In this document: positions 3,501 to 20,530 of the stretch, one piece after another | Position numbering within the stretch: position 1 is the stretch's first letter | How the letters are laid out: the number at the start of each line of letters is the position of its first letter | NCBI RefSeq assembly: GCF_900231165.1 | Contig: NZ_LT960614.1 | Span: 2,602,550-2,666,549 of the forward strand | Reading direction: 5' to 3' | DNA: 64,000 nt | From: Hartmannibacter diazotrophicus | GTDB lineage: Bacteria > Pseudomonadota > Alphaproteobacteria > Rhizobiales > Pleomorphomonadaceae | Position numbers and translations under genes: made by a program | Notes under the pieces: model-generated | Told to the model about the DNA's origin: nothing | Seen by the model: only the letters and a program-made list of their open reading frames with translations | The model's database searches: none

Positions 3501-6500
3501 TCCGCCGTTTCGAATCCTGCCTCGATCAAGCGTGCGGTTAGCGCCTCCGCGCCGGCAACGGGACCGATGGGATGGGCGCCAACGAGGGTATCGCGCCACC
3601 AGTCCGTGGCCGTACCACCGACGAGATCGGCGAAGAACGCCGGCTCCGGTTCGGCTGAAATGAAAAGCCCGCCTCCAGCCAGAAGCTCGGGTGATTTCGA
3701 AGCAATGTCATCCCGGGACGGCGTCGCCAGGGCGCCGATCGAAAGAACGACGTCGAAAGCCGACGCTTCGTTCAGTTCGTCGATCGTCAGGACCTCGATC
3801 TGCGGCTCTCCTTCGAGCCGAAGCTTCAGTCGCTCCACCTTGTGCGGATCGGCATCGGAGACGACGACACGGGTGACCTTGTCACCTCCCTGCGCAAGGA
3901 GACGGGCAACATGCGACGCGCCACGCCCGAGCACGAGAGCCCGCAACGGACGGCAGTCCGGCCACGTGCCCAGCAGATCTTCCGCCACGGTCGACGCCGC
4001 CTGAATCAGCGCTTCGCCAGTCTGCGATCCGGTCGCGAAATAGTCGGTAAGACCCGCGGAAAGTCTGGGGTCGTTTCCATCCTCAAGGCCGTCTGTCAGG
4101 ATTTGCTCAAGCGACGTCGAAAGACGCGAAAGCACCGCGACTTCGGCAATCCGCTTCGGATGGTCGCCAAGCAACGCCTGGATGACCGTGGAGAGCGCCG
4201 GATAGGGACTTTCGGCCGCAAGGGTCCAGATGCCGTCCTGCGAACACTCGGCCGCCCCGTCCTCCAGAACCGCGTCCAGTATCCTGCCAAGGAGCGGCAA
4301 GGCCGTCTCGTGCAGGCGTCCGTCGCCCGCCAGTGCCACTGGATCCAGACGGCGATCGTCGCTCGCGAACCGCTCCAGAGTGGAGAAAGCCAGAGACCGG
4401 CTGGCGGCATCGATGAGCAGATCGGCATCGTCCGGTTCGCCATAGTCGGATGCGACCAGACCGAGGGCCTGAGCCCGCCCGAGCGTCGCAGCCTCCCATG
4501 CCTCTCCCGCGTCAACCACCTCACCGGGCTCGATATGGCGCAGAGCGGCCACCCGGAACGCGAACTCGTCGGGATGATCGGGCCGCGTCAGATGAACCGA
4601 CTTGAAGCGACAGCCGTCAGCGACGGCAACAACGCTTCCGTCAGCGGCAATCAGCGTGAACTTCGCAACGACCGAGTGGCTCGATGCCTTCTCGATATCG
4701 ATGAAGGCGCCGACCGGCGTCGCGCCGGCGGCAAACAGCCTCAGACTGCCGATCCGCACAGGCAGGAACGACGTTCCCGCAACCGGGGCGACCAGGCGGG
4801 TGATCAACTGGAAAAGACCGTGGAAGCTGGCATCCAGCAGTGTCGGATGAAGGCTGAACTGGCTGTCGCCGACGTCGCCGGCCGCTGCATCCGAGAGAGC
4901 GACGTAGATCGACCGCTCCCCGATCTCATAGACACCCTTCGCCCGCCGGAATGCTGGTCCGTAGTTGAGGCCGAAGCGCTGCGTCTGAAGGTAGAGATCC
5001 TCGCTGGAGAGTGACGGCGTGCCGGTCGGCACCGTCCGCTCGTCCCGCGGCGCCGTCTGAACCGGAGCCTTTGCAACGCGACCACGCACGTGAAGTGCCC
5101 AGTCATCGCCGGAAAGACGGCGGCGGCTGCCGATCTCGATGACCTGATGGGCCATGTCGATGTCGACGCGCGTCTCGCGCGTCGATCCGTCCTCGATCAG
5201 CATCGGCCGAAGAATATCGAAATCGAGGACTTCCACCATCGAGTCCGGACCGAATTCCTGCCGGGCCGCAGCCAGCGCCATCTCGGCGAAACCGGCGGCC
5301 GGATAGACGGTCGCATCTTCGACCTTGTGATCCGCCAGCCAGGGGACCAGGTAGGTGTCGATGAAGGAAAAATAGGGGCCGGTGTTGAATCTCGACCGGC
5401 TGCCGAGAAGCGGATGGTCGTCGTCGTGTCCAAAGACGTCGAACGTTTCGTCCGAGGCCACGGGACGATAGGTCTGGTTCTGCCACGCATAGACCGGCAG
5501 ATCGATCCCAAGCGGCAGGGCAGGGCCGAAGAGCTTCTCCATGTCGATGGAGGCGCCATTGGCGAAGGCCCTTGTCGCGATGCCGCCGATGACGTCCTCG
5601 CCAACGCGGTCGGATTCATCGAAGCTGGCGAGCGCAACACCGGGCTTGCCGATGGCCGCCAGCGAGTCGGCAACATAGTTCTGCAGAACCGGCTTCGGCC
5701 CGATCTCGACGAAGACCCGCATGTCCAGCGCGGCGAGTTCCTCAACGGCCGCCCGGAACAGAACCGGACGACGCACATTCTGCCACCAGTATTCCCCATC
5801 CAGTTCCCGGCCGTCCAAGGACCGTCCGGAGACGGTCGAGATGAACTGGACCGGTCCGTCGGTGGGCGCGAGATCGCTCAAGGCGTCGACGATGTTGTTG
5901 CGGATCGGCTCGATCAGGGCGCAGTGGAAGGGATAGTCGAGCTTGAGCTTGCGCATCGCCCAGCGCTTCTTGCGGGCGAACTTCGCAAAGGCATCGATCT
6001 GGTCGTAGCTTCCGGACAACGTGACGCTGCGAGGACTGTTGTCGCCGGCGATTTCGAGACCCGCAAATTCGGGAAGCGACAGAGCTTCGCGCGCCTGATC
6101 CGCCGATACCAGCAGGGCCGCCATGCCGCCGAGGTGGCGCGTGACTTCCTGGCAGGTCGAGCGCACATGAATGAGTTCGACCGCCTGCTCCAGCGAGAGA
6201 GCTCCGCAGGCCCAGGCCGCGGCAACCTCGCCGACGCTGTGGCCCGCCACCGCGTCGGGCCGCAATCCGCGGCGGGCGAGGGCTTGGGTCATCGCCACCT
6301 GGATGGCGAACAGCAGCGGCTGGGCCACCTCGGTACGCTCGACGTCATTTTCCAGATCTTCGGAGAACAACGTCGTCAGGAGCGACCAGCCCGCGACGCG
6401 CATGAAGAGCCGGTTGATCGTCTCGAAGGCCTGCTGGAAATCCGGATCGGTCTGATAGGCGGCCATGCCCATGCCAGCCCACTGCGAGCCATTGCCGGAA

Positions 6501-8095
6501 TAGAGGAAGGCGACTTTTCCGTTCCGCGCCGTCGCCTGGGCCGAAATCGCACTCCGTTCGCCGGCAAGGAACGCGTCGAGGCCCTTGACGAGGTCGGATT
6601 GGCGGTCACCCGGCACGACAACGCGATAGTCGAGATGATCGCGCCGATAGGCAGCCGCATTGGCGATGATCCGCGCCTCGCCGTCATTCGCCGCGTCGAG
6701 ACGGTCGCGGTAGCGCTCGGCCAGAGCCTTCAGGGCTTCGCGCGATCGGGCACTGACGACAAGCGGCGCCTGGAACTCCGGCCTTTCGCTCGCCATAGTG
6801 GGAACAGCCTCTTTCAGCACGACATGGGCATTGGCTCCGCCAAATCCGAAGGAGTTGATGCCGATATGGTGCGGGCCTTCGCCGACAATCAGCCGCCCTT
6901 CGCTGACGACCTCGAGATTGAGCCCCTCGAAGTCGATATCGGGGTTGGGCGTATTGAAGTGCAAAGATGCGGGAAGCCGGCCCTTTTCAAGTGCGAGTTG
7001 CACCTTGAGCAGGCCGGCAAGACCCGATGCCGATTCCAGATGACCGATGTTCGTCTTGACCGAGCCGATCGGCAAGGGAGACGTCCGGCGCCGGCCGAGA
7101 ATGGTACCGAGAGCATTGGCCTCGATCGGATCTCCGGCGCGCGTTCCCGTGCCATGAGCCTCAACGTAGGCCAGCGAGCGCGGATCGATCTCGAAGCGCT
7201 CGTAGACCTGTTCGAGCAAGGCTGCCTGCTGCTCGGTGGAAGGAAGCGACAGCCCGGCGGTACGACCGTCCGAATTGATGCCGGACCCGACGACGAGACT
7301 GCGAATGGGATTGCCGGCCGCACGGGCAACGTCGGCCCGGCGCAGGACGATCGCGACCGCGCCTTCCGATCGCACATACCCGTCACCGGCGGCATCGAAC
7401 GCACGGCAAAGCCCTGTCGGGCTCAACATGGACGCCCGCGAAAAGCCGACGAAGGCGAAGGGCGACAGGAGAACATTCACACCCGCGACGACGGCCGTGT
7501 CGATCCGGCCGGCACGGATGGCCTCCAGTGCCTCATGCATGGCAACGATCGAGGACGAACAGGCCGTATCGACCGTGAAGCTCGGGCCCCTCAGATCGAA
7601 AATGTAGGAAATGCGATTGGAGACGATCGAAAGGGTGCTGCCGGTCATCGACTGCGTATCGCCGGACCCCGTATCCACGATCAGCGAGTGCGAATAGTCC
7701 ATGCCGGACGCACCGACATAAACGCCGGTCTCCGTTCCTGCGATGTCGGACGGCCTGATGCCGCTATGCTCGAAAGCCTCCCAGGCGACCTGCAGCAGCA
7801 GACGTTGCTGCGGGTCCATCTGCTCGGCTTCACGGGGCGAAATGCCAAAGAAAACAGGATCGAAGCCCCAGATATCCTCGATCTGGCCGGCTGCCCACGT
7901 GTAGCTGCGCCCAACGACACCCTGGCCCGGATGGCCGAAGCGGCGTTTCGACCAACGATCCGGCTGGACCTCGGAAATCACACATTCGCCGCGATCGAGC
8001 AGCCCCCAGAATTCGTCTGCTGTTGAAGCCTTTGGAAGACGGCAGGAATATCCAACGATGGCTATGTCGTTCAATGTCATCTCACAAAGGTTCAC
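557..8095 (-). CDS. Highly reducing type I polyketide synthase (KS-AT-DH-(MT)-ER-KR-ACP)
   Basis: A single-module synthase of 2,512 residues. KS (about 8-430): Cys179 in DTACSSS, His314 in VEAHGTGT and His352 in NIGHLES. AT (about 525-830): Ser620 in GHSVGE and His724 in YPFHCA. DH (about 893-1170): His923 in DHKVEDATVYP and Asp1088 in HPTLLDAS. A methyltransferase-like region (about 1380-1550) has a weak SAM motif. ER (about 1775-2095): HGGAGGVGLAALQ. KR (about 2113-2300): GGLGGFG, with the active-site Tyr in QAAYVAANAY. ACP (about 2393-2467): Ser2427 in GMDSLMALEL. No thioesterase follows. One module with a full reducing loop suggests iterative synthesis of a mostly saturated chain. The downstream oxoamine synthase would supply release. 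The open frame starts at a GTG (8095); an in-frame ATG at 8080 is equally possible because neither has a clear ribosome site. Confidence 0.95.
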   Translation of the reverse strand: MNLCEMTLNDIAIVGYSCRLPKASTADEFWGLLDRGECVISEVQPDRWSKRRFGHPGQGVVGRSYTWAAGQIEDIWGFDPVFFGISPREAEQMDPQQRLLLQVAWEAFEHSGIRPSDIAGTETGVYVGASGMDYSHSLIVDTGSGDTQSMTGSTLSIVSNRISYIFDLRGPSFTVDTACSSSIVAMHEALEAIRAGRIDTAVVAGVNVLLSPFAFVGFSRASMLSPTGLCRAFDAAGDGYVRSEGAVAIVLRRADVARAAGNPIRSLVVGSGINSDGRTAGLSLPSTEQQAALLEQVYERFEIDPRSLAYVEAHGTGTRAGDPIEANALGTILGRRRTSPLPIGSVKTNIGHLESASGLAGLLKVQLALEKGRLPASLHFNTPNPDIDFEGLNLEVVSEGRLIVGEGPHHIGINSFGFGGANAHVVLKEAVPTMASERPEFQAPLVVSARSREALKALAERYRDRLDAANDGEARIIANAAAYRRDHLDYRVVVPGDRQSDLVKGLDAFLAGERSAISAQATARNGKVAFLYSGNGSQWAGMGMAAYQTDPDFQQAFETINRLFMRVAGWSLLTTLFSEDLENDVERTEVAQPLLFAIQVAMTQALARRGLRPDAVAGHSVGEVAAAWACGALSLEQAVELIHVRSTCQEVTRHLGGMAALLVSADQAREALSLPEFAGLEIAGDNSPRSVTLSGSYDQIDAFAKFARKKRWAMRKLKLDYPFHCALIEPIRNNIVDALSDLAPTDGPVQFISTVSGRSLDGRELDGEYWWQNVRRPVLFRAAVEELAALDMRVFVEIGPKPVLQNYVADSLAAIGKPGVALASFDESDRVGEDVIGGIATRAFANGASIDMEKLFGPALPLGIDLPVYAWQNQTYRPVASDETFDVFGHDDDHPLLGSRSRFNTGPYFSFIDTYLVPWLADHKVEDATVYPAAGFAEMALAAARQEFGPDSMVEVLDFDILRPMLIEDGSTRETRVDIDMAHQVIEIGSRRRLSGDDWALHVRGRVAKAPVQTAPRDERTVPTGTPSLSSEDLYLQTQRFGLNYGPAFRRAKGVYEIGERSIYVALSDAAAGDVGDSQFSLHPTLLDASFHGLFQLITRLVAPVAGTSFLPVRIGSLRLFAAGATPVGAFIDIEKASSHSVVAKFTLIAADGSVVAVADGCRFKSVHLTRPDHPDEFAFRVAALRHIEPGEVVDAGEAWEAATLGRAQALGLVASDYGEPDDADLLIDAASRSLAFSTLERFASDDRRLDPVALAGDGRLHETALPLLGRILDAVLEDGAAECSQDGIWTLAAESPYPALSTVIQALLGDHPKRIAEVAVLSRLSTSLEQILTDGLEDGNDPRLSAGLTDYFATGSQTGEALIQAASTVAEDLLGTWPDCRPLRALVLGRGASHVARLLAQGGDKVTRVVVSDADPHKVERLKLRLEGEPQIEVLTIDELNEASAFDVVLSIGALATPSRDDIASKSPELLAGGGLFISAEPEPAFFADLVGGTATDWWRDTLVGAHPIGPVAGAEALTARLIEAGFETADWGPIALAGSQTSLLVAKMPTKSAATQEELVDPVLIVAVGNDALSKALADALSSDLSRRDRKVLLAVGDMDETGAGRLDAVGSDSDGGLKDLLAAGSAKDLVLLPAMRPISGWPTKVVLRATMVIHAILNGAMKPPARLWLVAPGGAGVASHDPVSAALWGLGRVLINEYPDIETRLVDFSPTMAPAEAATRLGRLLANPGDEREFVLDLQGSSVLRVVPAKGFASRAERNRLTGECGMVLDLEHQGSPDGLAWKAVERHAPADDEIEIEVAATGLNFRDVMWALGLLPDEALEDGFAGATLGMECSGVVTRVGPTVTRFVPGDRVITFAPACFASHVKVAEKAVAPVPAQLDLEAAATIPVTFLTAYYALVDLARLEEGETILIHGGAGGVGLAALQIAHWRGAKVIATAGSPEKRALLDMLGAHHVLDSRSLAFHDEVMQLTGGDGVDVVLNSLFGEAMERSIAVLRPFGRFVELGKRDYYANSRIGLRPFRQNLSYFGVDADQLLTRRPKLATRLFDDLVKRFEEGVFSPLPYRVFDADRITDAFRLMQQSGHIGKILVRPPEMMPAPGQRPTPIHADATYLIVGGLGGFGVETARSLVERGARHLALVSRSGTVSETAGAVIADMESAGAEVRVYACDAAERPQVDKLFETIAKEMPPLKGIMHTAMVIDDALFQNLDATRIESVLAPKIAGASNLDAASRGLPIDLFVLYSSATTLIGNPGQAAYVAANAYLEGLARQRHAAGLPALTVAWGAIADVGYLARNAEVNAMLSMRMGAQALTARQALKGLHLALDAGLDDPVIAYARMNWASAKRELAIMATPLAEVVMRNVDDSVAASTGDGELGRQIAELPQREAIKLVCDILADEISHILRLPLEDIDPVRPLTEIGMDSLMALELRMAAEQKLGFDIPLLSLANGATLSAIATRVVERVQGSEGALSGDAEIVAARHVAEDEGIDVSAAMSAIEERSAETKRLI

Positions 8096-8402: not shown

Positions 8403-10025
8403 TCAGGCGGATGGCCGTGCCTGAGTTTCCTTGATGTCCGCGAAGCGGATCTTCGGCCACTTGTCCCTGACGTAGTTCAGCGCATAGCCCGACGTCGACA
8501 GAAGAACCGGATCTCCGTCCACATCCTCGGCCGTCGCGCTGCGATTGGCAGCCAGGAATTCGTCAAGCTGCTTGCCGTCCTCGGCCGCAATCCAGCGCGC
8601 TAGGGTGTACTGGCTGCCTTCAAAACCGACCGTGAGCCCGTATTCGGCCGCAAGACGGTTCTGCAGCACGTCAAGCTGCAGAGCACCAACGAAGCCGACG
8701 AGGGCAGGGGAGCCATCGACCGGCCGAAAAACCTGCACAACACCTTCCTCGGCAAGCTCCTGAAGGGCCTGCTTGAGTTTCTTCGCCTTCATGGCGTCTT
8801 CAAGGCGCACCCGTCGAAGAATTTCGGGAGCGAAGTTGGGGACGCCGACGAAGGTCAGATCCTCACCCTCGGTCAACGTGTCGCCGATGCGCAAGGTTCC
8901 ATGGTTCGGAAGCCCGACGACATCGCCCGCGTACGCCTCGTCCGCGATATGTCGTTCCTGGGCGAAGAAGAACTGCGGCGTGTGGAGGCCCATCTGCTTG
9001 CCGGACCTGACGTGGCGGACCTTCATGCCCCGCGTCAGCTTGCCGGAACAAAGGCGGATGAAGGCAATCCGGTCGCGATGGTTCGGATCCATGTTCGCCT
9101 GGATCTTGAAGACGAAGGCCGTCATCTTCGCTTCGTTGGCATGGACCGTCCGCTTGTCGGCCGCCTGATCGCGCGGCGGCGGGGAAAATCGCGCCAGACC
9201 ATCGAGGAGATCCTTGATGCCGAAATTGCGCAGCGCCGATCCCCAGTAGACCGGCGTCAGCGTTCCCTCCCGGAAGGCTCCCAGATCGAAGGGATTGCAT
9301 CCGTCGCGGACGAGTTCCAGCTCCTCGGCGACATGGTCCATGTTGCGGGACGCCAGAAGGTCGGTGAGCGCATTGTCGCCGATCATGTCGTTGTGGTCGT
9401 CGCTGGTCTCGTTCATCAGCCGGACCTTGCCCGTCTCGATATCATACGTACCGAGAAAGTCTCGTCCGCCACCGATCGGCCAGGTCATCGGCGCGGTATC
9501 GAGCGCCAGCGTCTTCTCGATCTCGTCGAGCACCTCGAAGGGATCGCGCGTCTCGCGGTCCATCTTGTTGATGAAGGTGACGATCGGAATGTCCCTGAGG
9601 CGGCAGACCTCGAAGAGCTTGCGCGTGCGATCCTCGATACCCTTGGCCGCGTCGATGACCATGATCGCGGCATCGACCGCTGTCAGCGTGCGGTAGGTGT
9701 CTTCGGAAAAGTCCTCGTGGCCCGGCGTGTCGAGCAGGTTGAAGACGTTGCCGCCATATTCGAAGGTCATCACCGACGTGACGACAGAGATGCCCCGGTC
9801 CCGCTCGATGCTCATCCAGTCGGAACGTGTCCGGCGACGCTCGCCGCGCGCCCTGACCTGACCGGCAAGCTGGATCGCGCCGCCGAAAAGCAGCAGCTTC
9901 TCGGTCAGCGTCGTCTTGCCGGCGTCCGGGTGCGAAATGATCGCGAAGGTGCGGCGGCGGGAAATTTCCTGGTCCAGTGCATCAGGTCGGTCAGCCGCCT
10001 GACGTGCGGTCTCGGTCATGGTCAT
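8403..10025 (-). CDS. prfC: Peptide chain release factor 3
   Basis: RF3 is the cytoplasmic GTPase that removes RF1/RF2 from the ribosome after termination. Near the N-terminus are the P-loop SHPDAGKTT, the switch region RDRGISVVTSVM, DTPGHEDF and the specificity motif NKMD. Together with the RF3-type C-terminal domain and the 540-residue length, these separate it from EF-G. I start it at the ATG at 10025 (MTMTETAR). The frame stays open to 10112, but those extra 29 residues are not family-like. It is transcribed alone, downstream of the PKS promoter region on the same strand, and nothing suggests a link with the polyketide locus. Confidence 0.95.
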   Translation of the reverse strand: MTMTETARQAADRPDALDQEISRRRTFAIISHPDAGKTTLTEKLLLFGGAIQLAGQVRARGERRRTRSDWMSIERDRGISVVTSVMTFEYGGNVFNLLDTPGHEDFSEDTYRTLTAVDAAIMVIDAAKGIEDRTRKLFEVCRLRDIPIVTFINKMDRETRDPFEVLDEIEKTLALDTAPMTWPIGGGRDFLGTYDIETGKVRLMNETSDDHNDMIGDNALTDLLASRNMDHVAEELELVRDGCNPFDLGAFREGTLTPVYWGSALRNFGIKDLLDGLARFSPPPRDQAADKRTVHANEAKMTAFVFKIQANMDPNHRDRIAFIRLCSGKLTRGMKVRHVRSGKQMGLHTPQFFFAQERHIADEAYAGDVVGLPNHGTLRIGDTLTEGEDLTFVGVPNFAPEILRRVRLEDAMKAKKLKQALQELAEEGVVQVFRPVDGSPALVGFVGALQLDVLQNRLAAEYGLTVGFEGSQYTLARWIAAEDGKQLDEFLAANRSATAEDVDGDPVLLSTSGYALNYVRDKWPKIRFADIKETQARPSA

Positions 10026-10267
10026 CGTCTGGGCTTTGCCACATGTTTGCGCCGATATTGCGGACATCGCCGATCCCGTGGAATCCGACGTCGCAAACCG
10101 CATTGCCCACATGGCACGATGCTTTCGGCTTATTCAGCCACGTCCCTTACTGTGTCTGTCTTCACCATTCCAGAAAAAATCGTCCAATATGGCCGGCGGA
10201 GGGGATGATTGTCCTTCCGCGTTGAAGATTGACCGCAAGGCTTCGGCGAGCAGCCAGGCCGCATGCA

Positions 10268-10283
10268 ACCGACCTAGGTCGGT
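10268..10283. promoter_or_regulatory. 16-bp perfect palindrome, possible operator
   Basis: ACCGACCTAGGTCGGT reads identically on both strands. It lies in the 361-bp gap between prfC (minus) and the small membrane-protein gene (plus), 104 bp before the latter's start. Its length and symmetry suit a dimeric regulator, but the identity of any binder is unknown. I see no gene in the rest of the gap. Confidence 0.35.
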
Positions 10284-10386
10284 GAAGGCGCGAATACATC
10301 AGCGATGCCGGCAGAAGATCATGGCATGTCGAGCCTATGCCGATCCGAAAGTCGTCCAAGCCACCGATCAAGCCACGAGGCAGCCC

Positions 10387-10590
10387 ATGTCCGACATTGG
10401 CGGCATCTTCACTCCGGCGGATATCCTGTTGATGATCCTGGTCGCCTGCAGTCCCGGCGCGCTAGTCGGCGCCGTGCTGGGAGCCATCCTGCGCCCCGGC
10501 AGACGCCTGATCGCGGCGCTGCTCGGGGCAGTCGCCGGCTTTGTCGCCGCGTTCGTCGGCTGGTTTGTCTATCTGGAGGTCTTCAAGTGA
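10387..10590 (+). CDS. Small membrane protein, hypothetical
   Basis: A 67-residue protein with two predicted membrane helices, ILLMILVACSPGALVGAVLGAIL and a second hydrophobic run ending in FVGWFVYL, joined by a short basic loop (RPGRRL). The ATG at 10387 has GAGG seven bases upstream. The frame extends further upstream, but that part looks non-coding. The glycine/alanine-rich helices resemble small inner-membrane proteins of the GlsB/YeaQ type, but the match is too weak to name. Function is unknown. It stands alone between prfC and a convergent secreted-protein gene. Confidence 0.6.
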   Translation: MSDIGGIFTPADILLMILVACSPGALVGAVLGAILRPGRRLIAALLGAVAGFVAAFVGWFVYLEVFK

Positions 10591-10672
10591 CGCGACGGCA
10601 GAGCGTCGGTGCGGCGCGCGGCATCGAATTGCCGGCGCGCCGCCCGATGATAGCGATTGAGGGTACCGCCTC

Positions 10673-11413
10673 CTAAGGCGACACGGTCCCCCTGAGGTTG
10701 CCGGCATCCGTCACTTCGATCTCGGAAGAATCGGCGAGCGCGATAGCCTCGGCCAGGCCTTTTTCTCCCCCGTCATACGCCTCGATGGCATCGGCGATCT
10801 CCGGGTCCAGCGTCGCGAGCCGCGCATTAATCGCTTCGACGGTCTCGGCGGTCAGCGGCTTGTTGGACGCCAGTTCCAGGGCCGCCTTGACTTCAGCCAG
10901 CGAGGCCTCGTCGCCTTCGCCTGCGAGATAGGCGCCCAACTCGTCGGCATATCCCTGGGCAACGAGACCGATCGCCGAATTCGGCGCCGCATTGGCAAGG
11001 GCCTGAGGCGAAGCGTGCATGAAACCATTCAGCTTGCCGAAGGCGCTGGCCATTTCCTTGGGTTTCGGCACCGGCTGAACATCGAGCGCCTTCCTGGGTA
11101 GCGACTCCGACTTCAGCTGCGCCGTCTTGGCAGACTTTGAACTCTTCCTGGTCGCCGACGCCGTTTGGGATGATATCGACGACTTGGAGGATTTGGAGGA
11201 CTTGCCGTGCGACGATGCGGACTTGCCGTGCGACGACGATGAGCTCGAATGACTGCCGCCGCCCCCGTGGCCTCCACCTCCACCGTGGCTTCCACCACCA
11301 CCTCCTCCGCCGCCGCCACCGCCGCCACCTTTTCCGGCATAAGCCGGCGTCGTGGAAACCATTGCGGCAACAAGGGTTGCGCAGATGATGGTCTTGAGGC
11401 TTGCAGAGGCCAA
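10673..11413 (-). CDS. Secreted Gly/Ser/His-rich low-complexity protein
   Basis: About 246 residues. A signal peptide (hydrophobic core IICATLVAAMVS, cleavage probably after PAYA) is followed by an uninterrupted glycine run, then GSHGGGGGHGGGGSH, then serine/lysine repeats of the HGKSSKSSKSS type. The C-terminal half is ordinary, acidic and alanine-rich, and probably folds. I place the start at a TTG (11413) because GGGAGA lies just upstream; an upstream TTG at 11437 is in the same frame. The His/Gly tract could bind metal, and the Ser/Lys tract is probably disordered. I do not recognise a family. It acts in the periplasm or outside the cell. Confidence 0.6.
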   Translation of the reverse strand: MASASLKTIICATLVAAMVSTTPAYAGKGGGGGGGGGGGGGSHGGGGGHGGGGSHSSSSSSHGKSASSHGKSSKSSKSSISSQTASATRKSSKSAKTAQLKSESLPRKALDVQPVPKPKEMASAFGKLNGFMHASPQALANAAPNSAIGLVAQGYADELGAYLAGEGDEASLAEVKAALELASNKPLTAETVEAINARLATLDPEIADAIEAYDGGEKGLAEAIALADSSEIEVTDAGNLRGTVSP

Positions 11414-13176: not shown

Positions 13177-13629
13177 TCAGCGACAGGACGAAAAAACGTA
13201 GTCGGCTATGCGCGAATAGAGAAATTCGGTGTTGGTCGGCGCGCGCGGCGTCTTGTTCAGATAGTCGCCGTAGAAGGAGGGCACATAGTTCGGCCCGCCG
13301 CCGATCGCGTCCAGTGCTTCGGATTCCTCCAGCGTGCGGTCGAGCAGTTCCTTGTCGGGCAGCCTGAGCTTCACGGCCGACGACGTGCTCTGGAGGAAAT
13401 CGAGCGCTGCGTCCCGTTCGACGCCGGTGACTTCCAGAATGCCGGCAAGCCGCCACTGGCGACGCTCGCCATCGTAGTGCGGTTGCGGCGCGTTCGGAAT
13501 GCCCTGCGCCAATGCGCCCAGCAATGCCTCGACGTTCTGCGGGCGCTCGCCGGGCGCGGCCTTGGCGATTTTCGTCAGGTAGAGCCCGACATGCCTTGGC
13601 GAAATCACGGTCATCTCAACAGCAGCCAT
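13177..13629 (-). CDS. Hypothetical protein in operon with haem peroxidase
   Basis: A 150-residue protein starting MAAVEMTVISPRHVG. The ATG at 13629 has a near-perfect AGGAGGAGAAG ribosome site. No signal peptide or membrane helix is seen. The N-terminal half is helical with Gln/Pro-rich loops, the middle contains LDFLQSTSSAVKLRL, and the chain ends in YVFSSCR with its only Cys next to the last residue. It lies 34 bp after the haem peroxidase gene on the same strand, so the two are probably one transcript. I do not recognise a family. A partner, chaperone or substrate of the peroxidase are all possible, and none is shown. Confidence 0.72.
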   Translation of the reverse strand: MAAVEMTVISPRHVGLYLTKIAKAAPGERPQNVEALLGALAQGIPNAPQPHYDGERRQWRLAGILEVTGVERDAALDFLQSTSSAVKLRLPDKELLDRTLEESEALDAIGGGPNYVPSFYGDYLNKTPRAPTNTEFLYSRIADYVFSSCR

Positions 13630-13663: not shown

Positions 13664-15205
13664 TCACTTCAGAAATTCGATCAGTTGCTCCATGGAGCCG
13701 GGCAGGGCGCCCGGGCCGAAAACCGCGTCCAGCGACGACGGCAACATCGGGGAGCCTTCGATGTCGATCCGATGTTCCTTGAGGCTGGCGAAGATTTTCT
13801 CCGCCACGACGACCGAGGCGAGGAAGCCGAGGTGGCGCCCCTCTCCACCGCCTGCATCGACCGGAGCGCCGGCCTCATGCAGCGTGAAGAAGAAGAGCGG
13901 CGGATCGATCGCCACCCGTTCCGCGTCGTCATCGGTCATGCCAGACGCAGTGAGCCAGGCTTTCGCAAAGCTCTTGCGGCGGCCCGAATCGAAGGCCAGC
14001 CACCCGTCGGCCTCGGCAGGCTTCAGGGCCGCAATCCGCCCGGCGAGCGCCTCGACCTTGAGAACGCCGATGTCGAGCCCGCGGGCGAGATCGCGCAGCA
14101 CCAGGTCGGACGTCCAGTCGCCGTAGTCCTTCGGGATCGCGACGGCCGGATCCTCGACCAGATTGCCGGCGATGCTTGGCGTCAGCGGCAGGGCCTTCTG
14201 CGCGTGAGGTCCGAAATAGTGCCTCCAGTCGATCTTCCAGTGGATGTCCTGGGGAAAGGCATAGGGCCTCTGGCTCGCCGTCTCGGCGAGCATCTCGCGG
14301 ATCGACTGCATCGGAATGAGATCGTTCACGCGGTAGTCATGCCGGATGAGCGAGTGGCCGAACCGATAGACGGCGTGCGAGAATTCGGCCGGGAAACGGT
14401 GGCGATCATGCCCGTGCGGATGATCGAGAAGCTGGCCGTCATTGCGATAGTGGGCGAAGACGACGGGATGCAGAAGCCGTTGCATCAGGTCGTCGGCCAC
14501 CATCGAACGGTAGACGAAACGGGTGACAAGCCGCGCTGCCTCGAATCGGGCATCGGGCGCATTGACGCCCTCCAGACGATCGAACGCCTTGTTGTGCAAG
14601 GCAATGAACAGGGCCGTGATCTGCGCTGTCACCAGGTTGACGTCGTTGCGCGTATCTGCGGCAAACAGGGGCGTCGTCGCGTCGGGATGGAACGGGCAGG
14701 ACCGCGGCAGGTCGCCCGCGGCCTTCGACTTGCGGAACCGCCCCTGGCGCAGGCGCCAGCGCGCGAGATCGTCATTGCCTTCACCGTAAAGTCCGATCCG
14801 GTCCTCGTCCGGCCCGGCTCCATACAGCGTTTCGAGCATCAAGCGCAGGTGGCGATCCTGCGTCTCGGGGACCCGCTCGATCTCGTTTCCATCCGCGTCA
14901 TAATCGAACTCGCCGCCGCTGATCTTGCTGACATCGTGGCTGACGAGTTGCGCGAAATAGGTGTAGCCGGCCGGCAGGAAGAAGCCCTCTTCCTCGGGTG
15001 CCCTGGCCATGACGTCCGCAAGTTCCTGCAGCAGCCGCAAGGACCCGGCAACGTCGCCGGTACCCGAATAGCGCTCCTCCGGCCTGCTCGGACCGAACAT
15101 CGTGCGAAAATGGCGACTGCGTGCCGGATCCCGGGGCAGGGACGCATCGCCGGTCCTGCGGTCGAGCATGTTGTTATGCTGCGGAATATCATGGGATTTC
15201 AGCAC
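13664..15205 (-). CDS. Animal-type haem peroxidase family protein
   Basis: A 513-residue member of the animal haem peroxidase (peroxidasin/cyclooxygenase-like) superfamily. Visible landmarks are the distal His90-Asp91 pair in YFAQLVSHDVSK, the helix TRNDVNLVTAQITALFIALHNKAFDRL (about 185-211, with the typical HN), and the proximal His284 in EFSHAVYRFGHSLI. Known members use H2O2 to oxidise halides or organic substrates. I set the start at a GTG (15205) because GGGAGGAGA lies just upstream; the frame is open to 15322 without a better site. No signal peptide is visible, so it is cytoplasmic unless exported otherwise. It leads a two-gene unit with the 150-residue protein. Substrate unknown. Confidence 0.88.
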   Translation of the reverse strand: MLKSHDIPQHNNMLDRRTGDASLPRDPARSRHFRTMFGPSRPEERYSGTGDVAGSLRLLQELADVMARAPEEEGFFLPAGYTYFAQLVSHDVSKISGGEFDYDADGNEIERVPETQDRHLRLMLETLYGAGPDEDRIGLYGEGNDDLARWRLRQGRFRKSKAAGDLPRSCPFHPDATTPLFAADTRNDVNLVTAQITALFIALHNKAFDRLEGVNAPDARFEAARLVTRFVYRSMVADDLMQRLLHPVVFAHYRNDGQLLDHPHGHDRHRFPAEFSHAVYRFGHSLIRHDYRVNDLIPMQSIREMLAETASQRPYAFPQDIHWKIDWRHYFGPHAQKALPLTPSIAGNLVEDPAVAIPKDYGDWTSDLVLRDLARGLDIGVLKVEALAGRIAALKPAEADGWLAFDSGRRKSFAKAWLTASGMTDDDAERVAIDPPLFFFTLHEAGAPVDAGGGEGRHLGFLASVVVAEKIFASLKEHRIDIEGSPMLPSSLDAVFGPGALPGSMEQLIEFLK

Positions 15206-15455
15206 GCGGTCTCCTCCCGGCAATTTGGCGTGCCACGCCTGCAGCGGATATCGACGATCCGCATGTGCAAGGGTCGTGGCCTCAAAATCATTGTTCAAAA
15301 TCACGGGCCCAAATGGCCCCAAACTCTCTTATCGTCGCTTCATAACGTGAATGTGTGGGTTTTTGCAGTTTTCCTGTGATGTCAGTTGTCCGTTCGTGCC
15401 GCCACTACTGAAAATTTGAATCAATCTGTCCTCATCCGGCGGATGGCCACCGACA

Positions 15456-16685
15456 TCATTCCAATCCTCCGTTGAGCCTGAGAATCTCGACCATCCGGTC
15501 GGCGATCAGGTCGCAAACCTCCTCGGATGGGTGAACCTCGTCGGCCCAGTCCCTTCGCTCCGTCAGCAGGTCGCGATTGTCGATGACGAAAACCCCCGGC
15601 GATGCGCCCTGGCCGTCGGGAGCGCCGAACCGTGACAGCGTGGTCACGACAGCGTCGCCGACTCCGATCCCGAACCGTTCCCGCGCGATCGATTCCCGCA
15701 GGCCCGCACCGATCATCGCCGCAGACAGCCAGCCGTCCATCGGAATGAAGCGGCCATATCCATGAATCGCGATCCGCAGCCCCGGCGACACAGCCCGAAT
15801 GCCGCGAATGTAGCGCTCGATGAGAGACTGGTAGTTCGGCAAGGGAAAGCCGCTCGCCGGCACCGGATCACTGAAGCCCGCGACGGCAAAGGCGTCGGAC
15901 AGAATCGTGCTCGCGCCAATCGAAAGCACATAGGCCGCCGGTTCGCGGCCATAGCGCTTGAGGTTGGCGATCACATCCCGCAGTCCCGGGGCGAGCTGTT
16001 CCGGCCTTTCGAAGGTCCGACCGACAGGCAGAACGTTGCAGCATCCGGACAAACGATCGGCGATATCGCGGCGCCAGACCGGATAATGCAGCCAGGAATC
16101 GCCTTGCGTGATCAGGATGGGCGAGGGGTCCCCGTCATGGAGGCGCCGCCAGAACTGCCGGGCCGCCCGCTCACGCAGGAGATCGTTGAGAAAGCCGGGA
16201 ATGGCCGGACACCGGTCGGCGTCTTGAACCCTGGCCGGGGACGGCACGAGCATCGGTTCCAGCCCGAGTTCCGGCACGACGACCGCGCCGAGAAATGGAC
16301 TGCCGAAGGACTTGGGCATGTCCGGGCTCGACATCAGGGCGACGAGGCGGCCAAATCCGATCTGTCCTTGAACGTCGCCCGCCTGAGCCTCGCCCCCGGA
16401 GGTCCCGTCAGTGGCGCTCATCTGCGTTGCGCCATCGATATGCTCGCTCCCGATCGAAGTCCGCGAGGCGTCGATCTTCTGCATTTCAAGGAATTTGTGC
16501 GCGGCTTCCCACCACACGGGGAGCCGCCGCGAGACGCTGTGATCTGCCATGTTCTCCAGTTCGCACTTCGCATCCGTTGCCGCCCGCATCCGAGCGAATG
16601 CGGCATCGCCATACGAAAGGACAGAAGACTCAATTCCTGACGCCTTCACGATCCTTGTTGTCCGGTCAGGACTGCAACCGATCAA
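15456..16685 (-). CDS. SGNH/GDSL-hydrolase-like protein
   Basis: A 409-residue protein. Its C-terminal half carries the SGNH pattern: block I as ITQGDSWLHYP (Ser197), a block III-like VLSIGAST (about 255) with the usual Gly-Asn-Asp altered, and block V as DEVHPS (Asp382, His385). The N-terminal 180 residues are not recognised. A TTG at 16685, eight bases after GGAGG, is the best start. That site lies inside a 19-codon reading frame (16745-16686) whose TGA abuts the TTG, so translation may be coupled. A strong terminator separates it from the gene upstream, so it probably has its own promoter. Family members are esterases or lipases; the substrate here is unknown. Its placement among oxidative enzymes is suggestive only. 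Confidence 0.72.
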   Translation of the reverse strand: MIGCSPDRTTRIVKASGIESSVLSYGDAAFARMRAATDAKCELENMADHSVSRRLPVWWEAAHKFLEMQKIDASRTSIGSEHIDGATQMSATDGTSGGEAQAGDVQGQIGFGRLVALMSSPDMPKSFGSPFLGAVVVPELGLEPMLVPSPARVQDADRCPAIPGFLNDLLRERAARQFWRRLHDGDPSPILITQGDSWLHYPVWRRDIADRLSGCCNVLPVGRTFERPEQLAPGLRDVIANLKRYGREPAAYVLSIGASTILSDAFAVAGFSDPVPASGFPLPNYQSLIERYIRGIRAVSPGLRIAIHGYGRFIPMDGWLSAAMIGAGLRESIARERFGIGVGDAVVTTLSRFGAPDGQGASPGVFVIDNRDLLTERRDWADEVHPSEEVCDLIADRMVEILRLNGGLE

Positions 16686-16801: not shown

Positions 16802-16839
16802 AAAAAAGGGCCGCTCCGCCCCCCCGAGCAGAGCGGCCC
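16802..16839 (-). terminator. Rho-independent terminator of the haloperoxidase-like gene
   Basis: The stem GGGCCGCTC/GAGCGGCCC (16808-16839) is followed on the minus strand by six T residues, 48 bp after the stop of the haloperoxidase-like gene. Confidence 0.85.
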
Positions 16840-16886: not shown

Positions 16887-18902
16887 TCATCTGGAGACCT
16901 GCCTCAGCCACCATTGTTCGAAGGTCACGGGGCGATCGTCGGCGGCCCAGACATCCACCGTGACATCGCTGCCGCTGCCCGTCGTCGAGATGATCACCTT
17001 GTCGCCGTCGAAGCTCGGAAAGCGCAGCTGGATCGGTTCGCTGTGGTTGAGCATCTGCTCCTGCAGGATGCCTGCGGCGACACGCTCGCCAAGGCGCATG
17101 GCCTCGAAGCAGTCGGAGAAATAGTTGGCGCCCGCAGTGCAGCAGCCATGGCTGATGTTGGCGACGACCTTGTTGAGCTCGCCGGCAAGCGTCAGTTCCG
17201 TCGGCCGGACGTTGCTTTCCACGAGGTGGCTTCCGTCCGCAGCCGCTTCGAAGACCTGCTCGACACCGACATCGGCCAGCGTCTTCTCCCGCCAGTGATT
17301 GCGCGTCCAGCGGTTGGGACCGCCGACCGGCGCACCGTCGCCCCGGTAGAGATCGAACATCGCCTTGAGGATGGTGACGCTCGCGCCGACCGTCGCCGCA
17401 TGACAGGAGCCGTAGGATGGGCTCATCGGCGAGCCTTCGGGAAAAGCCATCGAAAGCAGCAGGTTGAGGTCCATCCAGTCCGGATGATCCTCGCCGGCGT
17501 AAAGGAGAAGGGCCCTTTCCGGATCGGATCGGAACGCCTCGTTCTGTGCCCTGTTGTGCGCATCGACCAGTTCCGCCAGACCGCTGTCCCTGAGCTCGCG
17601 GACAATCGCCTTCAACCGGGGTTCGAGGAGACCGAGCCGATAGGATTCCTCGCCGGCCGCCAAAGTGATCATGCCGGCAACGGCCTCGGGCCGGGCCCGC
17701 CGGTGAACGCAGAACTTCTGGCGCTGGATCGCCTTCGCTGCCCGGCTCGCCGCCTCTGCCACCAAGGTCAGGGCATGGCACGGACCGAAGGGGTCGGTCT
17801 TGGTCCGCCAGGGATGATTGGTGCGGATCGGCAGGCTTCGTTCGAAGGGGGTCCTGAGACCGATGAGAAGCATGCAGGCATTGAGCGCCGCCTGATGAAC
17901 AAACTCAGAATGGGCATGGGCGGCAAGGTCACGCGGAGTGGCAACGAAGCGAGGCTCCTTGGCAAGGCGTTCCGTCTCGCAGACGTCCGCACCATTTTGG
18001 ACATCCAGCCAGCCGCTCCAGCCAGTCATGAAGTCGATCCCCGGCTCGGACGGGACGATGCGCTGGTCGATGCGCTGGGGGCCGCAGCGGACAATGCCAT
18101 CCTCGGGCTTGAGGTCCTGCCTGGAGCAGGCGGTCCCGACGAGAAGAAACTGGGAGACGGTCGGTCCCCGATCCGCTCCCGGCGCAAAGCCGCGCATCAG
18201 GCCGGCAAGCCCCTGGCGCCGGAAGGGCTTGCGGGCCTGCTGCCGCCTTGCTTCGCCGGTCTCCAGTGTCTGGCCGCCGTTTCCTTGCTTGGCCGAAAAC
18301 CAGGTGAGCGAGGCAAGCGCCGACTGAACCCCGCGCGTCCGGTCGTCCTCAGGCTTTTCAAGCATGGCGAAGGGAACGTCACGCAAGAGGGAGAGGGCGT
18401 AGAGTTCCGCCATCTCGGCGGACACCTCGGCGGAGCCAAGTGCCGGTGCCGGCGGAAGCGAGAGCTCGGCCGCATCCGGTCCTTCGAGATCGTAGAGATG
18501 TCCGGCCCGCGGATGCGCCCAGGCACGGCGGCCGGGCCGTGAAGGTATCGGCGTCGCGGTGATCGTGGTGGAGTAATTCGTGGAGGCGAGCCGTGGCAGA
18601 AAGGCGGAGGGGGACGCGCAATTGACCGCGTTGACGAAGACGCAATAGGCGTCCTCGCAGACAAGGCCATATTGGTCGTGTGGCAGGCCCTTGCTGAAGT
18701 TGGCCGGCCAGAAGCCGATTGCCTCGGCCTCCTCGCCATTCGAGCGCGCCGGTCGGTGCGGCCGGGCGGCGGCAAACCGGGCCGCCTCGATCCGCTGGGC
18801 CTTCGCCTCGTCGGCCCGGGGCTTGTCGTCGATCTCCGGACGCGGATAGGCGATCTGCGGATAACTCGTCGCTATCACCGGACGCGGAAACCTCGGCTGC
18901 AT
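16887..18902 (-). CDS. Vanadium-haloperoxidase-family protein lacking vanadate ligands
   Basis: A 671-residue protein of the red-algal/cyanobacterial type of vanadium-dependent haloperoxidase (PAP2-related fold). Diagnostic parts are KFCVHRRARPEA (Lys396, Arg404), SPSYGSCHAATVGASVT (Ser499, His501) and ELNKVVANISH...GANYFSDCFEAMRLGE (from 575), and the length fits. Three active-site positions differ: the Gly of SGH is Cys500, the Arg of the third motif is Cys587 and the His that binds vanadium is Asn593, inside GCCTAGAN. It should therefore not hold vanadate normally and may have a thiol-based or structural role. The start ATG (18902) has GGAGGAGGA six bases upstream. It is divergent from the YcaO gene and ends at a strong terminator. 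No signal peptide is seen. The family is clear; the activity is not. Confidence 0.85.
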   Translation of the reverse strand: MQPRFPRPVIATSYPQIAYPRPEIDDKPRADEAKAQRIEAARFAAARPHRPARSNGEEAEAIGFWPANFSKGLPHDQYGLVCEDAYCVFVNAVNCASPSAFLPRLASTNYSTTITATPIPSRPGRRAWAHPRAGHLYDLEGPDAAELSLPPAPALGSAEVSAEMAELYALSLLRDVPFAMLEKPEDDRTRGVQSALASLTWFSAKQGNGGQTLETGEARRQQARKPFRRQGLAGLMRGFAPGADRGPTVSQFLLVGTACSRQDLKPEDGIVRCGPQRIDQRIVPSEPGIDFMTGWSGWLDVQNGADVCETERLAKEPRFVATPRDLAAHAHSEFVHQAALNACMLLIGLRTPFERSLPIRTNHPWRTKTDPFGPCHALTLVAEAASRAAKAIQRQKFCVHRRARPEAVAGMITLAAGEESYRLGLLEPRLKAIVRELRDSGLAELVDAHNRAQNEAFRSDPERALLLYAGEDHPDWMDLNLLLSMAFPEGSPMSPSYGSCHAATVGASVTILKAMFDLYRGDGAPVGGPNRWTRNHWREKTLADVGVEQVFEAAADGSHLVESNVRPTELTLAGELNKVVANISHGCCTAGANYFSDCFEAMRLGERVAAGILQEQMLNHSEPIQLRFPSFDGDKVIISTTGSGSDVTVDVWAADDRPVTFEQWWLRQVSR

Positions 18903-18970
18903 AATGTCCTCCTCCTCGGCCCGATCCCCATCAGGCGTTGGAAGCAGACTGGACCGACTTGCGTCAGACG

Positions 18971-19004
18971 AACGTCAGCTATCGTCAATCGACGATCTGA
19001 CGTT
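18971..19004. promoter_or_regulatory. Long inverted repeat in divergent promoter region
   Basis: AACGTCAG-CT-ATCGTC, four bases AATC, then GACGAT-CTGACGTT: two 14-base arms match perfectly except for a CT insertion in the left one. It sits between the haloperoxidase-like gene (start 18902) and the YcaO gene (start 19190), 69 bp from the former. No T-run follows, so an operator controlling the divergent pair is more likely than a terminator. Confidence 0.5.
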
Positions 19005-19189
19005 TGGCGGACGGCGCATGACGGAATTCCCGAGGATGACGAAGGGGTTGCAAAGCACGCGAACCGCGGGAAATTGAATTTCCTATCAATTTCAATAAAT
19101 TACGCTATAAATTGCGCATCGGATCATCACAATCCCGTCGATCGTGAGAGAGCCTTCGGCTCGCCGAACCGTCATTCGGAGCGTCATTC

Positions 19190-20530
19190 GTGTCGAAAAT
19201 TCCCATTTTGAACGCCCGCCACGGTGAGGCGGCCGGGACCGGGATAGATGCTTCGAAGGAGGCCGGAGACATTTCGGCGTTGGGATTCGGCCTGCCACTG
19301 CCGCCTGGCGACCGTCAGATTCTGCAACTGCTGGCCCTGTTCGACCTTGAGGTCGAGATCATTCCGCTCTTCGGCCTGTATCTCGCGACAACGAACCTGG
19401 CCGATCCGTCAGGCCCGATCACGGCCAGCGGATTCGGCTTCGACCCGCCGACGGCAATCCGCCGATGCCTCGGCGAATGCGCCGAGATCGTCAGCAGCCG
19501 GTTCGATGCGCAGACGGACCGGAGCCGCATCGTTTCCTCAACCCATGGCCCAAGGCTCGATATCCAGCAGTGCCTCGGCTTTTCCTTGCGGCAACGGCAT
19601 CACCGGGAAGACTTCGACCGCCTTTGCGCCGGCCATGACAGCCTGCCGCCGGACGCGATCATGGACGAGACCGGTCATTGGTGTCAGGTCGAGCGGCTCG
19701 GCGACGGCGCGCCCGCCTTCGTGCCGGCCTTCTGCCTTTTCAGCAATTTCGGGCTTGCGGTTCTCGGTGAGCCGAACACCGCTGCCGACAGCAACGGTCT
19801 TGCTGCCGGCACCAGTCCCGACGACGCCGCCCTTCGTGCCGTCGCCGAACTCGTCGAGCGCGACGCCGCTGGCCGCTGGTGGTGGTCGCAGCGCCAGTGC
19901 GCCGCGCTGATGCCGGAGGCGGGCGAGGGCGCCTTCATCGAGCATCTTGCAAGACACGAGGCCGAAACGGGACGAAGAAGCTGGTTCCTTCATCTCGGCA
20001 GCCTCGCCGGGCTGCATGCGGTTGCCGGGATCTCGGCCGAACTGGATGGAGGCCGGGTCTCGGTGGGGCTTGGCTGCGCGGACGATCCGGCCAAGGCCAA
20101 GGAAAAGGCCTTTCTGGAATCCGTCCAGCACGATCTCGCCATCCGCGGCGCCGAACTGAGGGCCGCCCGCGGAGGGCCGTTGAGCGCACGGGACCGCCTC
20201 CTGATGCAATGGGGAGCAAGCGCCACGACGGCGACAATGCCCCACCTCCTGCCGGCCGGGGTGACCACAATCGGCGAGCGCAACGTGACGAAGGAAGACC
20301 TCGCGGTGCCATCGCCATCCACTGCGGCGGCCGCGTTAGAGGCAATCGGCATCGACGTCTTCATCTTTCGCCTGACCCGGCCCGACATCGGCATCGACGT
20401 GGTCAGGGCCATCGCCCCCGGGCTTGCCCATTACAAGCCGCGCTTCGGCTCAATGCGGCTTCTGGATGTTGCCAGCGAAGGCAATCTGACAGAAAGGCTG
20501 GCCGCCGGATGGCCGCTCCTGACGATCTGA
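19190..20530 (+). CDS. YcaO-family ATP-dependent enzyme, stand-alone
   Basis: A 446-residue YcaO protein. The signature ATP/Mg motifs are present: an acidic helix IRRCLGECAEIVSSRF (about 90-105), DSNGLAAG (200-207) followed by ALRAVAELVERDA (214-226), and KEKAFLESVQHDL further on. Known YcaO enzymes activate backbone amides with ATP to make azolines, amidines or thioamides in RiPPs and some proteins. It ends in WPLLTI, not the PxPxP tail of many azoline-forming members. No E1-like, TfuA, dehydrogenase or protease gene lies nearby, and no short Cys/Ser/Thr-rich precursor is visible. The GTG at 19190 has GGAG upstream. It is divergent from the haloperoxidase-like gene, which suggests a shared pathway. 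The substrate is unknown. Confidence 0.9.
   Translation: MSKIPILNARHGEAAGTGIDASKEAGDISALGFGLPLPPGDRQILQLLALFDLEVEIIPLFGLYLATTNLADPSGPITASGFGFDPPTAIRRCLGECAEIVSSRFDAQTDRSRIVSSTHGPRLDIQQCLGFSLRQRHHREDFDRLCAGHDSLPPDAIMDETGHWCQVERLGDGAPAFVPAFCLFSNFGLAVLGEPNTAADSNGLAAGTSPDDAALRAVAELVERDAAGRWWWSQRQCAALMPEAGEGAFIEHLARHEAETGRRSWFLHLGSLAGLHAVAGISAELDGGRVSVGLGCADDPAKAKEKAFLESVQHDLAIRGAELRAARGGPLSARDRLLMQWGASATTATMPHLLPAGVTTIGERNVTKEDLAVPSPSTAAAALEAIGIDVFIFRLTRPDIGIDVVRAIAPGLAHYKPRFGSMRLLDVASEGNLTERLAAGWPLLTI

What the first reader, a model, noticed from the sequence alone, without database searches (positions are those of the whole stretch)
16887..20530. Divergent YcaO / degenerate haloperoxidase pair: candidate new modification system
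A YcaO enzyme without E1-like, TfuA or precursor partners shares a 287-bp promoter region with the Cys-rich haloperoxidase-like gene. YcaO enzymes can act on large proteins (methyl-coenzyme M reductase thioamide is the known case). Inference: the haloperoxidase-like protein, or a peptide elsewhere, is the YcaO target, and the peroxidases and SGNH protein nearby belong to the same pathway.
Basis: inference. Interest (0 to 1): 0.75.

Follow-up and report, generated by a model that had tools for sequence, protein, structure and literature searches.

The report
YcaO module with Cys-tailed partner protein
Both genes are real, but the enzyme's likely target is a small overlooked protein with a conserved cysteine tail, found beside the same kind of enzyme and usually a heme peroxidase in more than 25 other bacterial genomes, and not the degenerate haloperoxidase next door.

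Summary
The haloperoxidase is degenerate: its axial vanadate His is Asn and a vanadate Arg is Cys. Homologues not linked to a YcaO keep both.

The claim that there is no precursor is wrong. A 150-aa ORF (13177-13629, -), directly after a heme peroxidase (13664-15322, -), belongs to a family with no Pfam or NCBIfam model. I found it at 35 loci in at least 17 families, always near a YcaO (once only a fragment) and at 30 loci after a heme peroxidase. Members share about 20% identity but end in an invariant tail, R-[IV]-x-[DE]-Y-x4-C-x; a sister class keeps only the Cys.

Best explanation: a stand-alone YcaO modifies the C-terminal Cys of the small folded protein, probably to thiazoline, and the heme peroxidase acts on the product. 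No exporter, peptidase, E1-like protein or dehydrogenase recurs. The linkage and conservation are shown; the chemistry is inferred.

The parts
19190..20530 (+). Stand-alone YcaO enzyme (446 aa), no fused E1-like or RRE domain seen
   Evidence: PF02624 E 6e-40; motifs DSNGxAAG and ELVERDA conserved; sister to Methylobrevis, then Mesorhizobium ephedrae YcaO in the tree
13177..13629 (-). Small partner protein, proposed YcaO substrate (150 aa from ATG 13629; the open frame runs to 13659)
   Evidence: Homologues near YcaO in 5 further genomes from a single-sequence search; 35 loci in all; no Pfam or NCBIfam family; predicted folded, pLDDT 87
13180..13218 (-). C-terminal tail YSRIADYVFSSCR; R140, Y144 and C149 invariant in 21 family members
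   Evidence: Alignment A2; Cys retained in the sister class ending [KR]CR
13664..15322 (-). Heme peroxidase (An_peroxidase), distal and proximal His motifs retained
   Evidence: PF03098 E 3e-8; HD and GHS motifs; just upstream of the small protein in 30 of 35 loci
15456..16685 (-). SGNH-hydrolase-like ORF, lineage-specific accessory
   Evidence: No Pfam or NCBIfam hit; syntenic in Methylobrevis at 37% identity, where GDSW is GDAW
16887..18902 (-). Degenerate vanadium-haloperoxidase-like protein: Ser494, Cys500, Cys587, Cys588 and Asn593 replace conserved active-site residues; K396, R404, S499 and H501 kept
16808..16839 (-). Intrinsic terminator (14-bp GC-rich stem plus T6) after the haloperoxidase-like gene, also present in Methylobrevis
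18903..19189 (.). 287-bp divergent intergenic region
   Evidence: no sigma-70 consensus match inside it

Best explanation
The locus is a protein-modification module in which a stand-alone YcaO activates a backbone amide in the C-terminal tail of a small folded partner protein (13177-13629). The most likely product is a thiazoline at the invariant penultimate Cys149, in the sequence SRIADYVFSSCR. The heme peroxidase encoded just upstream then oxidises the modified tail, for example azoline to azole or at the nearby invariant Tyr144, or uses the modified protein as its redox partner. In the window lineage a vanadium haloperoxidase that has lost its metal-binding residues, and an SGNH-like protein, were added beside this core. 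Shown: the gene family, the tail conservation, the linkage and the loss of vanadate ligands. Inferred: that the small protein is the substrate (likely, about 0.8), which bond is modified (about 0.5 for thiazoline), and what the peroxidase does (open).
For: A search with the window's small protein alone found 7 further genomes at E <= 1e-3 besides itself and Methylobrevis; in 5 of them the hit lies within about 3 kb of a YcaO. The profile search found 27 genomes with E < 1e-11 of 397, all with a YcaO within 5.6 kb (one only a 94-aa remnant); 8 of these were not used to build the profile. 35 distinct loci: heme peroxidase in 30, mostly within 90 nt on the same strand or overlapping; BTAD regulator in 33. 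The 21 aligned proteins have 20% mean column identity, yet R140, Y144 and C149 are invariant. Only four families recur across lineages: YcaO, BTAD, peroxidase and small protein. The linked YcaOs cluster in the tree: 5 label changes against 30.5 in shuffles. Sister YcaOs sit beside NHLP-type precursors that also have a Cys near the C-terminus. Precedents: E. coli YcaO modifies folded uL16 (PMC13063428); a YcaO cyclodehydratase engages folded NHLP leaders (PMC12455567).
Against: No chemistry was tested. No leader-binding (RRE or E1-like) partner was seen, and no azoline dehydrogenase. Four genomes of one genus and a Rhodospirillum MAG lack the peroxidase nearby, so it may not be needed for the YcaO step. 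The predicted model puts the tail motif in a helix, which would have to unfold. In the window lineage the module is rearranged: no BTAD gene, and YcaO lies 5.5 kb from the small protein. One genome (G025) keeps YcaO and BTAD without a detectable small protein. The profile was built from loci chosen near YcaO, so part of the linkage count is circular.
Confidence: 0.62

Rival explanations
1. The YcaO modifies the degenerate haloperoxidase-like protein, perhaps guided by its N-terminal segment.
For: Adjacent and divergent in both genomes of the lineage. Vanadate ligands lost only in these two. The first 60 aa are 92% identical between them, against 54-59% elsewhere. In Methylobrevis the apparent frameshifts fall in just these two genes.
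Against: Absent from the other 33 YcaO/small-protein loci. The pair-specific Cys residues C398 and C587 lie in former active-site motifs, not in an accessible tail. The haloperoxidase gene has its own terminator.
Confidence: 0.1
2. The small protein is the precursor of a secreted azole peptide (ordinary TOMM/LAP natural product) whose tail is cleaved off and exported.
For: YcaO plus a Cys-tailed protein; sister YcaOs sit with NHLP-type precursors; BTAD regulators are common in natural-product clusters (general knowledge).
Against: No peptidase or exporter recurs across the loci. The tail is nearly invariant, unlike most antibiotic cores. No E1-like protein and no FMN dehydrogenase.
Confidence: 0.2
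3. The YcaO installs a backbone thioamide rather than a thiazoline in the tail.
For: YcaOs with a folded protein substrate (uL16, McrA) make thioamides (PMC13063428).
Against: No TfuA at the locus; the own genome's other YcaO is the TfuA-linked one. An invariant Cys at the tail fits azoline formation better.
Confidence: 0.25
4. The YcaO and small protein are linked only by co-regulation or synteny, with no enzyme-substrate relation.
For: No biochemical evidence exists.
Against: Linkage persists over at least 17 families while the other neighbours change, and the most conserved part of the small protein is its C-terminal tail.
Confidence: 0.08

Closest known systems
Linear azol(in)e / TOMM clusters (e.g. 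LynD; MprC with NHLP precursors)
   Same: YcaO superfamily enzyme, a partner protein with a C-terminal Cys, NHLP-type precursors in the sister clade
   Different: No E1-like/RRE partner, no FMN dehydrogenase, no recurrent peptidase or exporter; a heme peroxidase instead; tail nearly invariant
E. coli YcaO / uL16 thioamidation (PMC13063428)
   Same: Stand-alone YcaO acting on a folded protein
   Different: Candidate substrate is a dedicated small protein in the same cluster, not a ribosomal protein; its tail has an invariant Cys
YcaO-TfuA thioamide systems (McrA, thioamide RiPPs)
   Same: YcaO without an E1-like protein
   Different: No TfuA here; the own genome has a separate YcaO-TfuA pair
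Vanadium-dependent haloperoxidases (Acaryochloris/Corallina type)
   Same: Homologous over most of the length; K396, R404, S499 and H501 retained
   Different: Axial His is Asn, a vanadate Arg is Cys; not expected to bind vanadate in the known way

Membership tests
TOMM / linear azol(in)e RiPP cluster | YcaO (D) protein with the conserved motifs | tested here: met
TOMM / linear azol(in)e RiPP cluster | E1-like or RRE leader-binding partner | tested here: not met
   None among the ORFs scanned at 10.7-21.2 kb; none recurrent in 35 loci
TOMM / linear azol(in)e RiPP cluster | Precursor with a heterocyclisable residue in the C-terminal part | tested here: met
   Invariant C149
TOMM / linear azol(in)e RiPP cluster | Peptidase or exporter and FMN dehydrogenase | tested here: not met
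   No such family recurs
TOMM / linear azol(in)e RiPP cluster | Azoline or azole actually present in the product | not testable with these tools
   Needs mass spectrometry
YcaO-TfuA thioamide system | TfuA next to YcaO | tested here: not met
   Absent here; a TfuA-like protein is beside the other YcaO of the genome
NHLP (nitrile-hydratase-like leader) precursors | Match to TIGR03793 / NHLP models | tested here: inconclusive
   No match for the window protein or the A2 members; sister-clade precursor in L096 weak, E 0.017; no PDB fold match for the model
Vanadium-dependent haloperoxidase | Axial histidine and vanadate-binding arginine | tested here: not met
   N593 and C587 at those positions; seven YcaO-unlinked homologues and the A. 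marina enzyme keep His and Arg; axial His in all known VHPOs (PMC11871015)
Animal-type heme peroxidase | Distal and proximal histidine motifs | tested here: met
   PF03098; both His in 9 of 10 seed proteins, the tenth read in a wrong frame

The most novel reading that the evidence does not exclude
YcaO and heme peroxidase together build a protein-bound redox group from the C-terminal Cys (and perhaps the invariant Tyr five residues before it). The group stays on the small folded protein and serves as its cofactor, which would be a YcaO-made cofactor and not a secreted peptide.
Probability: 0.25. Interest if true: 0.85.

Novelty: new variant of a known kind. Interest (0 to 1): 0.65.

Why it matters
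YcaO enzymes without an obvious substrate are a recognised gap in genome mining (PMC4603692 sets the stand-alone ones aside as having unknown substrates). Here a dedicated substrate candidate, with one invariant tail and no family model in Pfam or NCBIfam, comes with the enzyme and usually a heme peroxidase across at least 17 families. That makes the question testable with two or three genes co-expressed in a laboratory strain. If the product stays on the protein, it would extend YcaO chemistry from peptide natural products and housekeeping proteins to a dedicated modified protein.

Tried and rejected
Haloperoxidase as the conserved partner: rejected by the neighbourhood survey. Plasmid search with the small protein: no match; with the haloperoxidase: 6 distant records. 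PDB fold search with the small-protein model: no E-value below 0.5. NHLP, Pfam or NCBIfam assignment of the small protein: no match for the window member. Structure of the haloperoxidase-like protein, to measure distances between its new Cys residues: mean pLDDT 58, not used. PDB sequence match for the peroxidase: none at E 0.1. Literature for YcaO with haloperoxidase, heme peroxidase or BTAD: nothing relevant in the library searched; subscription papers are not covered.

Full report
OBSERVATION. Both genes are present as described. YcaO is 446 aa at 19190-20530 (+), the haloperoxidase-like protein 671 aa at 16887-18902 (-), and 287 bp separate their start codons. YcaO matches PF02624 at E 6e-40 and is nearest in the PDB to LynD and TruD. 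The other protein matches the vanadium bromoperoxidase of Acaryochloris marina at E 9e-90. It is not unusually Cys-rich: 13 of 671, against 0.4-2.7% in homologues.

THE HALOPEROXIDASE-LIKE PROTEIN IS DEGENERATE. Against A. marina and seven homologues from the same order, the window protein keeps K396, R404, S499 and H501. It has Ser for an active-site His (494), Cys for Gly (500), Cys for a vanadate Arg (587) and Asn for the axial His (593). Methylobrevis shares C587, the Asn and C398 but keeps the His at 494. The homologues, none of which has a YcaO within about 9 kb, keep Arg and His at 587 and 593. A recent paper states that all known VHPOs bind vanadate through an axial His (PMC11871015). 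The roles of the individual residues are from general knowledge of the Corallina and Acaryochloris enzymes.

THE OVERLOOKED PARTNER. Directly downstream of the heme peroxidase (13664-15322, -) lies a 150-aa ORF (13177-13629, -). Methylobrevis pamukkalensis (family Pleomorphomonadaceae) has the whole block, with the small protein 60% identical and its tail nearly identical. A single-sequence search of 397 genomes of the order gave 7 hits besides the window genome and Methylobrevis. Five lie within about 3 kb of a YcaO; G174 and G365 do not. A profile then found 27 genomes at E < 1e-11, all with a YcaO within 5.6 kb, one of them only a 94-aa fragment. Eight of these were not in the profile. Together with the sister class and loci from named genomes (Mesorhizobium ephedrae, Pararhizobium, a Rhodospirillum MAG), there are 35 distinct loci.

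ARCHITECTURE. The usual order is heme peroxidase, then the small protein (within about 90 nt or overlapping), then a BTAD regulator, then YcaO, mostly with the last two on the opposite strand. The window and Methylobrevis differ: no BTAD gene, YcaO divergent from the haloperoxidase, an SGNH-like gene added, and a terminator after the haloperoxidase gene in both. Across lineages only YcaO, BTAD, peroxidase and small protein recur; other recurrent families are confined to close relatives. No exporter, peptidase, E1-like protein or dehydrogenase recurs.

THE TAIL. Twenty-one class I proteins have 20% mean column identity, but R140, Y144 and C149 are invariant: SRIADYVFSSCR in the window, SRIGDYVMSRCK in M. 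ephedrae, SRIADYTIRGCR in another genome. A smaller class lacks the Tyr and ends [KR]CR. Cys is thus the common residue. About 7% of 100-220 aa ORFs in these loci have a Cys in the last two positions. No Pfam or NCBIfam model covers the window protein. A model with mean pLDDT 87 is alpha/beta, with the tail motif on a final helix, and has no PDB match.

RELATION TO KNOWN SYSTEMS. In a tree of 136 YcaOs the linked enzymes cluster (5 label changes against 30.5 in shuffles); the window YcaO is sister to Methylobrevis, then Mesorhizobium ephedrae. Sister YcaOs without the peroxidase sit with NHLP-type precursors that also have a Cys near the C-terminus. E. coli YcaO directly thioamidates folded uL16 (PMC13063428), and a YcaO cyclodehydratase engages folded NHLP leaders by protein-protein contact through its RRE domain (PMC12455567). 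So a stand-alone YcaO acting on a folded partner is plausible. It works like these, but it fails the TOMM membership test on the E1-like/RRE partner and the accessory genes, and the TfuA system on TfuA.

MECHANISM, WITH STATUS. Shown: linkage, tail invariance, degenerate haloperoxidase, intact peroxidase motifs. Inferred, likely: the small protein is the YcaO substrate. Inferred, open: thiazoline at C149 rather than thioamide; oxidation or use of the modified tail by the heme peroxidase; retention on the protein. The four genomes of one genus without a nearby peroxidase, and the Rhodospirillum MAG, suggest that the YcaO step can stand alone. Peroxidases of this family are also common without the module (53 of 367 genomes), and the ones nearest to the window's are mostly those in the module.

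LIMITS. The profile was seeded from loci near YcaO, so the single-sequence search and the eight unseeded genomes are the more independent evidence of linkage. The Methylobrevis YcaO and haloperoxidase appear frameshifted in a draft assembly, which may be sequencing error. The literature library holds only open-licence papers, so an earlier description in a subscription journal cannot be excluded.

Noticed in passing
L037 (own genome, G000:C1:2702000-2721900), 8542-11050 (-), outside the window: A second YcaO (9300-10541) sits beside a TfuA-like protein (8542-9303) and a 155-aa ORF with about four tandem copies of a 23-aa unit (ESLSAASSHNWGEPVRGGDMAVA), with a BTAD-like regulator upstream: looks like a thioamide RiPP cluster with repeated cores.
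   Followed up: partly
L036 8115-9391 and 9477-11514: In Methylobrevis the YcaO has one and the haloperoxidase-like gene two apparent frameshifts, while CreA, SGNH-like, peroxidase and small-protein genes look intact.
   Followed up: partly
window 18723-18902 (-): The first 60 residues of the haloperoxidase-like protein are 92% identical to Methylobrevis (87% DNA identity), far above the 54-59% of the rest; other homologues do not share this segment.
   Followed up: no
L096 6074-6526, L189 6244-6579, L151 9454-9792, L195 10113-10700: Sister YcaO/BTAD loci without a peroxidase carry NHLP-type precursors ending in GCR, or in GC plus a few residues.
   Followed up: partly
L186 3923-4842: Two paralogous small proteins in tandem, both ending ARIGDYSIRNCG.
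   Followed up: no
window 557-8095 (-): A 2512-aa single-module polyketide synthase (KS, AT, DH, ER, KR and carrier domains) lies about 5 kb from the block.
   Followed up: no
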